Assembly: GCF_001428025.1 (NCBI RefSeq)
Contig: NZ_LMSC01000004.1
Span: forward strand, 1-54,733
DNA: 54,733 nucleotides
Reading direction: 5' to 3'
Source: Phycicoccus sp. Soil748
Lineage (GTDB): Bacteria; Actinomycetota; Actinomycetes; Actinomycetales; Dermatophilaceae
The notes below the pieces were generated by a model. That model was not told where the DNA came from and did not search any database. It was given only the letters and a program-made list of their open reading frames with translations. Both the position numbers and the translations under genes were made by a program. Shown piece after piece: positions 31,462 to 32,660 of the stretch (its first letter is position 1; every line of letters begins with the position of its first letter).

Positions 31462-31519
31462 CGAGGGGTTGATCCGGGGGCCGCACGAAGGCCCCGGGCC
31501 ACGCCCGCGACGGCACAGC

Positions 31520-31600
31520 GACGTGCAGTACCCGGTCGTGCCCGACGGCAGCCGCACGGTGCAGCGGGCGCGGGCCCGGTTCCACGGAGTACTGCACGTC
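31520..31600. repeat. Left inverted-repeat unit of the nuclease islet
   Basis: GACGTGCAGTAC (31520-31531) and GTACTGCACGTC (31589-31600) are perfect 12-base inverted arms enclosing 57 bases. The unit is 81 bases long and ends 64 bases before the ATG of the nuclease-like gene. The interior contains shorter self-complementary stretches (CGTGC/GCACG). Confidence 0.8.
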
Positions 31601-31664
31601 CCTGTCTGCCGACGAACCTGTGGACGACCGGGAGGAGCGGTCGGTCGGGCGCGACGCTGGTGCG

Positions 31665-32600
31665 ATGCACCCGCCCGGTCCAGCACGCGCGCTCGCCGTC
31701 GCCGATGCGCTCGGCAGACTCGGGGGCTGCGCCACGTGGTCGACCTTGCGTGCCCTCGTCCCGCAGTCGGCCCTCGAGAGTGCCGTGGCAGAGGGGTCGG
31801 TTGTCCGGCTGCGACGGGGCCGCTACGTGCTGCCTGCCGTGTCGGCGCACCGGCGGGCAGCGCACGCCCGCAGCGGGGTCGTGTCGCACCTGAGCGCGGC
31901 GTTGGCCCACGGCTGGCCGGTCCTGCGGCCACCCGTGCGGCCGTGGCTGACCGTCCCGCGCAACCGCAAGGTCTCGCGCGAGCAGCGCCGCGGGGTGGTC
32001 ATTACGTATCGCGACCTGTCGCCGCACGAGCGCGCGGCCGGCCTCACCGACCCGATCCGGACGGTGCTCGACTGCGCAGTCAAGCTGCCGTTCGACCAGG
32101 CCCTCGCCGTGGCCGACTCCGCCCTGCGCTCGGGCGACGTGGCGCGGCACGAGCTGCTTGCCGCGGCTCGGGCCCTGCGGGGTACCGGCTCCTCGCGCGC
32201 CCGCCGCGTCGCCGTGGCAGCCGACCGGCGCGCGGCGAACCCGTTCGAGTCAGCACTGCGCGCGATCGCCCTCGACCTGCCGGGGCTGCGGCTTCAACCC
32301 CAGCTCGTCATCGCCGATGTCGGGGTGTTTGCGACCGTGGACCTCGGCGATCCCCGTGCGCGGGTGGTGCTGGAGGCGGAGGGGTTCGAGTTCCACGGGA
32401 CCCGGGACGGCCTCGAGCGGGACTGCCGTCGCTACACCGAGCTCGTGATGCACGGCTGGCGGGTGCTGCGCTACACGTGGGACGACGTGGTGCACCGTCC
32501 CGAGTGGGTGCGCTGGACCATCGAGGTCCTCGTGGCTGGGCTCAGCGGTCTGCCTGCTCCCCCGCAGCCGCAGGAGGAGCGACGTGCAGTGCCGGCGTGA
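31665..32600 (+). CDS. AbiEi-type winged-helix plus DUF559 (Vsr-like nuclease) protein
   Basis: The product (311 aa from ATG 31665; 326 aa if GTG 31620 is used) has an N-terminal winged-helix region like AbiEi antitoxins (LGRLGGCATWSTLRALV, VVRLRRGRYVLPA). Its C-terminal domain is related to DUF559/Vsr endonucleases: FESALRAIAL, VDLGDPRARVVLEAEGFEFHG, and WRVLRYTWDDV. The Glu, Asp and Glu positions of a PD-(D/E)xK site appear intact. No cognate AbiEii toxin or methyltransferase is adjacent. The gene is on the plus strand between rarA and DUF948. Its last codons lie inside the right inverted-repeat unit. Nuclease activity is inferred, not shown. Confidence 0.82.
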   Translation: MHPPGPARALAVADALGRLGGCATWSTLRALVPQSALESAVAEGSVVRLRRGRYVLPAVSAHRRAAHARSGVVSHLSAALAHGWPVLRPPVRPWLTVPRNRKVSREQRRGVVITYRDLSPHERAAGLTDPIRTVLDCAVKLPFDQALAVADSALRSGDVARHELLAAARALRGTGSSRARRVAVAADRRAANPFESALRAIALDLPGLRLQPQLVIADVGVFATVDLGDPRARVVLEAEGFEFHGTRDGLERDCRRYTELVMHGWRVLRYTWDDVVHRPEWVRWTIEVLVAGLSGLPAPPQPQEERRAVPA

Positions 32601-32660
32601 CCCCAGCCGTCGTAGTGCGGACGGCGGCTCCGCGAGACCTCCGCCGGCCTACTGCACGTC
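32581..32660. repeat. Right inverted-repeat unit of the nuclease islet
   Basis: GACGTGCAGT (32581-32590) and ACTGCACGTC (32651-32660) are inverted arms enclosing 60 bases, for a unit of 80 bases. The arms are the same motif as the left unit and the centre-to-centre spacing is nearly identical (70 versus 69). The left arm encodes the last residues of the nuclease-like protein. A second 13-base inverted pair, GTGCCGGCGTGAC (32589-32601) with its complement at 32668-32680, overlaps in a crossing order. Confidence 0.75.

What the first reader, a model, noticed from the sequence alone, without database searches (positions are those of the whole stretch)
31520..32660. A lone wHTH-DUF559 nuclease gene bracketed by two matching ~80-base inverted-repeat units
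The motif GACGTGCAGT(a) occurs four times, arranged as two inverted pairs: 31520-31531/31589-31600 and 32581-32590/32651-32660. The pairs have almost the same total length (81 and 80 bases) and arm spacing, but unrelated interiors. They sit on each side of one gene, and the right unit supplies its last codons. Identical termini around a putative Vsr-like nuclease are what one would expect of a compact mobile or self-propagating unit whose nuclease recognises its own ends, or of a nuclease with dual operator sites. AbiEi/DUF559 fusions are common in actinobacteria, but I know of no described association with such end structures.
Basis: partly seen in the sequence, partly recalled or inferred. 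Interest (0 to 1): 0.8.

Follow-up and report, generated by a model that had tools for sequence, protein, structure and literature searches.

The report
Nuclease gene between paired self-sites
A small bacterial gene, predicted to make a DNA-binding protein fused to a DNA-cutting domain, sits between two matched copies of what looks like its own double binding site; the layout recurs in many relatives, with a different site sequence in different lineages, which suggests a little-known self-recognising, probably selfish, genetic element.

Summary
In the window, two inverted-repeat units (81 and 80 bp, arms GACGTGCAGT) bracket a lone AbiEi-DUF559 gene. In 61 of 130 distinct homologue loci matched units bracket the gene, against 21 of 4000 swapped-flank pairs and 0 of 346 pseudo-gene windows. 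Arm sequence varies between loci; the four arms of a locus agree equally well in every pairing, over ~24 bp. With no length rule, the two units differ by at most 1 bp in 45 of 48 loci, else by 11, 21 and 31 bp. The predicted protein is a full AbiEi fold plus the catalytic fold of homing endonuclease I-Bth0305I/Vsr. Arm type follows protein clade; related elements occupy one site in both orientations; gene-less sites lack these arms as pairs (one remnant apart), though several hold other inverted repeats. Best reading: a nuclease element that recognises, and probably synapses, its own two ends. Binding, cutting and mobility are inferred, not shown. Main rival: a dual-operator autoregulatory locus. 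No plasmid match and only two doubtful virus-collection hits were found, so any movement is slow.

The parts
31515..31605 (.). Left unit (core 31520-31600, 81 bp): inverted pair of ~22-nt arms around an unrelated spacer, upstream of the gene
   Evidence: arm equivalence tested for the family
31617..31625 (+). CCTGTGGAC, DnaA-box-like motif (name recalled) between left unit and gene; TGTGGA is found near the start in 72 of 128 family loci against 2 of 125 downstream control stretches
31620..32600 (+). ORF for the AbiEi-DUF559 protein (326 aa from GTG; likely start ATG 31665), stop TGA 32598-32600 inside the right unit
31686..32225 (+). AbiEi-like part (residues 23-202; winged helix plus second domain)
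32232..32549 (+). DUF559 / Vsr-like nuclease domain (residues 205-310; invariant E210, D241, E252, H259, D268 in 31 aligned sequences)
32581..32660 (.). Right unit (80 bp): same arms GACGTGCAGT in inverted orientation, unrelated spacer; encodes the last codons of the protein

Best explanation
This is a compact chromosomal element made of one gene and its two ends. The AbiEi part of the protein binds a ~24-bp site (the arm). Each end is a pair of such sites, inverted, a few helical turns apart. The two ends probably synapse with each other through the protein, which would explain why their spacers match each other and no universal length. The Vsr/I-Bth0305I-like domain would then cut DNA between the arms of a unit, allowing slow spread by repair: insertion beside or in units of related elements, replacement, and changes of orientation. 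The left unit lies upstream of the gene, so the same binding may also repress it (no promoter scan was run). Shown by comparison: the recurring architecture, its specificity for this gene family, arm equivalence, matched spacing, arm type following protein clade, the predicted folds. Inferred: binding, synapsis, cutting, mobility and repression.
For: Matched units bracket the gene in 61 of 130 unique loci vs 21 of 4000 swapped pairs (narrower flanks 56 of 130 vs 90 of 16,770) and 0 of 346 pseudo-gene windows. Without any length rule, unit lengths differ by 0 in 32, 1 in 13, and 11, 21 and 31 bp in the other 3 of 48 loci. Within-unit complementarity (0.62, 0.62) is no better than between-unit identity (0.62-0.68), as for four protein sites (65 loci). 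At the rarA-DUF948 site of this genus the units are 70/71 (G006) and 71/71 (G007) but 80/81 in G000: both longer by about one turn. Arm type, assigned by eye, agrees with the nearest protein subclade in 17 of 17 Nocardioides loci at one site. Opposite gene orientations at one site: proS, hpt, and the L122/L150 site. Footprints of another arm type beside units, seen by eye: L172, L178, L229, L230. The ORF stop lies inside the right unit in 32 of 56 loci, within 14 nt of the unit centre in 26. Fold: AbiEi + I-Bth0305I/Vsr. AbiEi binds 23-bp inverted repeats (PMC7319586, passages); I-Bth0305I dimerises on a target of nearly 60 bp (PMC3943268, passages).
Against: No clean insertion with target duplication was found. 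All 20 gene-bearing loci read at the Nocardioides glgA site have one orientation. No plasmid match; one unverified 'phage' contig and one weak viral-contig hit. 69 of 130 loci show no detected pair, and four own-genome paralogues show no convincing one. Half-unit mosaics expected from cut-and-ligate at the centre were not seen. The central motif is only mildly enriched. The helical periodicity of spacings between loci is broad (best 0.55 near 11-11.5 bp, but still 0.44-0.50 at 12-14.5). No precise solo-unit excision product was seen.
Confidence: 0.52

Rival explanations
1. Dual-operator autoregulation only: the AbiEi part represses its own promoter from the left unit and loops to the right unit; the nuclease acts elsewhere (for example in defence) and the locus is not mobile.
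For: AbiEi and Rv2827c autoregulate through inverted repeats in the promoter (PMC7319586, passages). The left unit lies upstream of the gene. Occupancy within a genus is largely vertical and matches in plasmid and virus collections are absent or doubtful. Matched spacing also fits a repression loop.
Against: It does not explain why a full second double site sits at or after the stop codon, why the stop clusters near its centre, why related elements occupy the same intergenic site in both orientations, or the arm footprints beside units.
Confidence: 0.32
2. The units act as RNA or single-strand hairpins (terminators, mRNA stabilisers, or HUH-type transposon ends).
For: Both window units fold better than shuffles (z -4.0 and -4.5), as inverted repeats must; interiors alone are somewhat over-structured (107 interiors, mean z -0.55, 10% below -2; control 55 stretches, mean -0.02, 2%).
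Against: Within-unit pairing is no better than between-unit identity; unit lengths match to 1 bp or differ by 11, 21, 31; most interiors are not structured; no Rfam match up to E 0.1.
Confidence: 0.06
3. Site-specific inversion switch: the units serve to flip the gene (phase variation) without spread.
For: Opposite orientations at one site; the two units are inverted copies of each other in L048 and L150.
Against: At proS the two orientations belong to different subclades with different outer arms, which points to replacement rather than flipping; 20 of 20 gene-bearing Nocardioides loci read share one orientation.
Confidence: 0.05
4. Dispersed genomic palindromes (REP/MITE-like) that happen to flank the gene.
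For: Nocardioides genomes do carry dispersed palindromic arrays, for example 146 copies of one word in G589.
Against: In the window genome the arm occurs at background and the paired form only here; pseudo-gene control 0 of 346; arms differ by locus and follow the protein clade.
Confidence: 0.02

Closest known systems
EDxHD homing endonucleases (I-Bth0305I) and Vsr
   Different: DNA-binding part is AbiEi, not a phage modular domain; two intact candidate target sites bracket the gene, whereas a homing gene normally interrupts its single target (recalled); chromosomal and actinobacterial in the material read, not phage or intron
AbiEi antitoxin / type IV toxin-antitoxin (AbiE, Rv2827c)
   Different: No DUF1814 toxin gene among the window neighbours (DUF948, MgsA/RarA-type ATPase, alaS); fused to a nuclease; sites also downstream; gap between repeats 3-13 bp in AbiE/Rv2827c, tens of bp here
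Tn7 TnsA / insertion sequences
   Different: No DDE, HUH, serine or tyrosine recombinase recognised in the element's gene; each end is a complete symmetric double site; no target duplication identified
REP/RAYT systems
   Same: Palindromic units flanking a gene for a DNA-processing enzyme (recalled)
   Different: No dispersed copies in the window genome

Membership tests
DUF559 (Pfam PF04480) | Score above the curated cut-off | tested here: met
   24.1 bits vs 20.6
EDxHD homing endonuclease (I-Bth0305I family) | Catalytic domain fold | tested here: met
EDxHD homing endonuclease (I-Bth0305I family) | Cuts a long target in an allele lacking the gene and is copied into it | not testable with these tools
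   needs biochemistry and crosses
EDxHD homing endonuclease (I-Bth0305I family) | Target site interrupted by the gene (feature recalled) | tested here: not met
   if the units are the targets, two intact copies flank the gene
AbiE type IV toxin-antitoxin system | AbiEi fold | tested here: met
AbiE type IV toxin-antitoxin system | Adjacent DUF1814 nucleotidyltransferase toxin gene | tested here: not met
   window neighbours are DUF948, MgsA/RarA-type ATPase and alanyl-tRNA synthetase (ORFs); not checked for every relative
Insertion sequence / classical transposon | Encodes a DDE, HUH, serine or tyrosine transposase | tested here: not met
   the one convincing ORF between the units matches only DUF559, MTES_1575 and AbiEi models; other reading frames were not scanned
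Insertion sequence / classical transposon | Target-site duplication at a clean empty site | tested here: inconclusive
   gene-less sites found but flanks too diverged to place exact junctions
REP/RAYT | Units dispersed through the genome | tested here: not met
   25 exact arms vs 23 control, paired form only here; tested for the window genome only

The most novel reading that the evidence does not exclude
A new class of mobile element: a single AbiEi-homing-endonuclease fusion that recognises, synapses and cuts two matched double sites at its own ends, moving by nuclease cutting and host repair with no transposase or recombinase. New copies settle beside or in the end units of related elements, leaving arm footprints. 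Arm sequence, arm spacing and protein specificity co-evolve, giving a natural series of matched nuclease/site pairs across Actinomycetota.
Probability: 0.35. Interest if true: 0.92.

Novelty: new variant of a known kind. Interest (0 to 1): 0.78.

Why it matters
Homologues of this protein are frequent in related genomes (52 of 58 searched, the window's own included, have a match at E <= 0.001; not all of these carry units). In the library searched I found no paper holding both AbiEi and DUF559 or both DUF559 and inverted repeat. If the units are the protein's own sites, the genome itself names the likely target of each of dozens of divergent predicted nucleases: a ready set of protein/site pairs for testing binding code, spacing, synapsis and cutting. 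It would turn an orphan family into either a new kind of self-maintaining element or a new layout of autoregulation with two double operators.

Tried and rejected
RNA hairpin reading: disfavoured by arm equivalence and length matching, although interiors are somewhat more structured than control stretches; Rfam nothing up to E 0.1. Dispersed-repeat reading: rejected for the window genome. Solo units at gene-less Nocardioides sites (L161, L165, L166, L168, L179, L180, seen by eye) first looked like excision products. The L161/L168 arms proved to be a dispersed family in G589 and G466, with no DUF559 match in any of 14 fetched stretches; the other four were not followed. They do not count as evidence for excision, and they mean that gene-less sites there are not free of inverted repeats.

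Central-cut mosaic model: half-unit comparison on 70 loci (4 of them too palindromic or short to split) showed similarity in direct copy (for example L036, L063, L121, L151) or inverted copy (L048, L150), but no pattern of centre breakpoints. Central motif CTGAGCGTG: TGAGCGTGG (<=1 mismatch) was found in 15 of 100 units of 50 loci (6 close orthologues of the 56 dropped), 13 of them within 5.5 nt of the unit centre; but the best 8-mer (9 loci) only equals the largest shuffle value (mean of shuffle maxima 6.8), so it is a lead. Spacing explained by protein length: weak correlation only (rho 0.38, 48 loci, relatives not independent). Own-genome paralogues L002-L005: no convincing units (L002 only a self-palindromic word, L005 score 4, two none). 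In-place flipping at proS: weakened by the tree and by different outer arms.

Limits of the tests. The locus counts require unit lengths within 2; the test without a length rule is, whose tie-breaking favours small differences, whose swapped control gave 18 of 4000 (10 with difference 0-1, 4 with 11), and in which L123 (93/72) can also be read as 89/91. Of the 65 loci used for arm analysis (L026, L029, L104, L149 dropped as near-perfect palindromes or doubtful) two differ by 2 bp and one (L177) by 8. For periodicity I kept 48 of 65 loci with arm-motif score >= 3, collapsed to 28 groups; p 0.0025 is against uniform lengths for the best period in 10-11.5 bp, but the signal stays 0.44-0.50 at 12-14.5 bp, so exact helical phasing between loci is suggestive only. 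TGTGGA was counted from an estimated gene start; its reverse word TCCACA is in 48 of 128 of the same stretches, and no control was made for that word. Context clusters rest on single-linkage translated matches, some weak. Arm types and footprints were assigned by eye. The reverse reading of the proS footprints (ancestral flank that resembles an arm end) is not excluded. L057, used as an example of the same arms elsewhere, has units with four mismatches, below my threshold. I lowered the best-explanation odds from 0.55 to 0.52 and raised the operator rival from 0.30 to 0.32 after this check, because of the broad periodicity.

Full report
OBSERVATION. The word itself occurs 25 times in the 3.97-Mb genome against 23 for its reversed control, but the paired form occurs only at these two places, control 0. 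The gene between them lies between DUF948 and a MgsA/RarA-type ATPase gene, with alaS beyond DUF948 (Pfam). The two unit interiors are not alike.

THE LAYOUT IS FAMILY-WIDE. I collected homologues by genome search and contig scan, gave 138 loci to the gene finder, kept 137 with a match and 130 after removing 7 duplicates. Left out beforehand: L002-L005 (own-genome paralogues, tested apart, no convincing units) and the flank loci L081-L091. With no motif given, I looked for two inverted units, one on each side, with similar arms (9-mers, total mismatches <= 2) and lengths within 2. Found: 56 of 130, against 90 of 16,770 when upstream and downstream flanks of different loci are combined, many of these between related loci. 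With wider flanks: 61 of 130 against 21 of 4000. Pseudo-genes placed elsewhere in the same loci: 0 of 346. Members with only 28-37% identity to the window protein are included (L028, L029, L147 and others). 69 of 130 have no detected pair; some are decayed or truncated (L025, L051, L133), others lack it at this sensitivity.

FOUR EQUIVALENT SITES. Arms differ between loci (GACGTGCAG, GGCACGGCA, CCAGTCGGC, TCGACAGGA, CACTCACAA and so on) but agree within a locus. Over 65 loci, agreement outside the seed word is the same within a unit (0.62, 0.62) and between units (0.62-0.68), and spans about 24 positions. An RNA stem would favour within-unit pairing; four protein sites would not. Dropping the length rule, 48 of 130 loci qualify; unit lengths differ by 0 (32 loci), 1 (13) and otherwise 11, 21 and 31 bp. 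A shared arm motif (about GCGGACAGAA) lets spacings be anchored across loci; 28 groups from 48 well-scoring of 65 loci lie mostly near 57-58, 67-72, 78-83 and 88-104, with a broad periodic signal that is best near 11-11.5 bp (p 0.0025 against uniform lengths for 10-11.5 bp, but not sharply peaked). This agrees with, without proving, binding on one face of duplex DNA. Since spacing does not follow protein segment length yet the two units of a locus match each other, the simplest inference is that the units interact with each other (synapsis or looping), or are copied from one another.

EVOLUTION AT ONE SITE. In the 11 genomes of this genus all have DUF948. Between it and rarA, G000, G006 and G004 have the gene, G007 and G003 a decayed gene, G001 and G002 other sequence with no unit, and G005, G008, G009 and G010 only 44-99 nt as extracted. 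Units are 80/81 in G000, 70/71 in G006, 71/71 in G007; one unit of 70 remains in G003, and one of 70 with arms changed to GACGGGCA in G004. So both units of G000 are about one helical turn longer than in its relatives. The four gene-less gaps hold no pair of these arms (searched with the word GACGTGCA, <= 1 mismatch); G005 keeps a single GACGTGCAGT followed by GAGCGTGG.

In Nocardioides I searched 196 genomes at the 3' end of a glycosyltransferase gene (glgA-like by context; Pfam glycosyltransferase families), of which 117 matched, and read only the best 30 loci: 20 carry the gene, all in the same orientation; 1 (L160) is decayed; 9 lack it. One of the 9 (L172) keeps a left arm, the gene tail and the right unit; several others hold inverted repeats of other sequence. 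Units were recovered in 17 of 20 (L159, L171, L173 missed); lengths agree within 2 in 16 of 17, and differ by 8 in L177. Two arm types, assigned by eye, occur at this one site, and in 17 of 17 loci the type agrees with the nearest protein subclade (7 with L099, 10 with L100/L102). In L172 and L178 the right arm of one type lies directly beside the right arm of the other, as if one element had been added at, or had replaced, another.

MANY SITES, BOTH ORIENTATIONS. Flank comparison puts the 130 loci in 26 shared contexts and 41 single ones. At proS, at the hpt site (L027/L028) and at the L122-L150 site the gene is found in opposite orientations relative to the same neighbours. At proS, in five genomes with 95-100% identical proS segments, L229, L230 and L234 read with proS and L231 and L232 against it; the two sets belong to sister subclades (L230 placed by its best match) with different outer arms, and L229 and L230 keep the last bases of the other arm type just outside their own unit, L234 does not. 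The Quadrisphaera relative L057 carries a weaker version of the second arm type at another chromosomal place. So arms and gene appear to travel together. Against frequent movement: no plasmid match, one unverified contig among phages, one weak hit in viral contigs.

INNER DETAILS. The stop codon of the gene lies inside the right unit in 32 of 56 loci, within 14 nt of its centre in 26 and within 5.5 nt in 14; this fits a boundary at the unit centre but could also follow from arms placed at the gene end. Some unit centres carry CTGAGCGTG, only mildly above shuffles overall. The two interiors of a locus can be close direct copies (L151, L063), inverted copies (L048, L150) or unrelated. TGTGGA, DnaA-box-like (name recalled), is near the estimated gene start in 72 of 128 loci against 2 of 125 downstream stretches.

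VERDICT. The paired units are real, specific to this gene family in the material examined, and best read as the protein's own binding sites, in two pairs (I hold this part at about 0.85). That they are the ends of a slowly mobile, nuclease-driven element is the reading I prefer, because of the downstream unit, the reversed orientations, the re-occupation with footprints and the homing-type nuclease; it is not proved. A dual-operator autoregulatory locus is the serious rival. In the library searched, no paper holds DUF559 with inverted repeat or AbiEi with DUF559; of the papers listed I saw titles and abstract beginnings, and passages of PMC3943268 and PMC7319586 only. Preprints and most subscription journals are not held, so novelty is judged within that limit.

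Noticed in passing
G589 genome; loci L214-L223, L168: A 17-bp word AGTCGGCGCATCCTGAC occurs 146 times (<= 2 mismatches, control 1) in arrays with mostly 32-bp period, forward copies then reverse copies; 16 copies in G466. No DUF559 match in the 14 stretches read.
   Followed up: partly
L165, L166, L179, L180 (Nocardioides glgA site): Gene-less sites hold other solo, nested or tandem inverted units (for example three tandem copies of GCGTCATACGAA-20-TTCGTATGACGC in L179).
   Followed up: no
window 31617-31625 and family loci: DnaA-box-like TGTGGA near the gene start in 72 of 128 loci.
   Followed up: partly
L089, L090 (G001, G002): The same rarA-DUF948 gap holds other small genes (they look like a glyoxalase-type gene and a vapBC-type pair; names recalled from the sequence, no search), so this gap seems to accept insertions.
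   Followed up: no
L028, L044, L048, L150 unit interiors: A second kind of unit interior built on CGACACGCC/GGCGTGTCG repeats.
   Followed up: no
L091 (G005): Gene-less site with one arm GACGTGCAGT fused to GAGCGTGG, resembling the central motif of other units; possible deletion scar.
   Followed up: partly
L092 (MT837367.1): A contig deposited as an unverified bacteriophage carries a homologue (55% identity); its nearest relative in the tree, L009, is from a bacterial genome, so it may be bacterial DNA.
   Followed up: no
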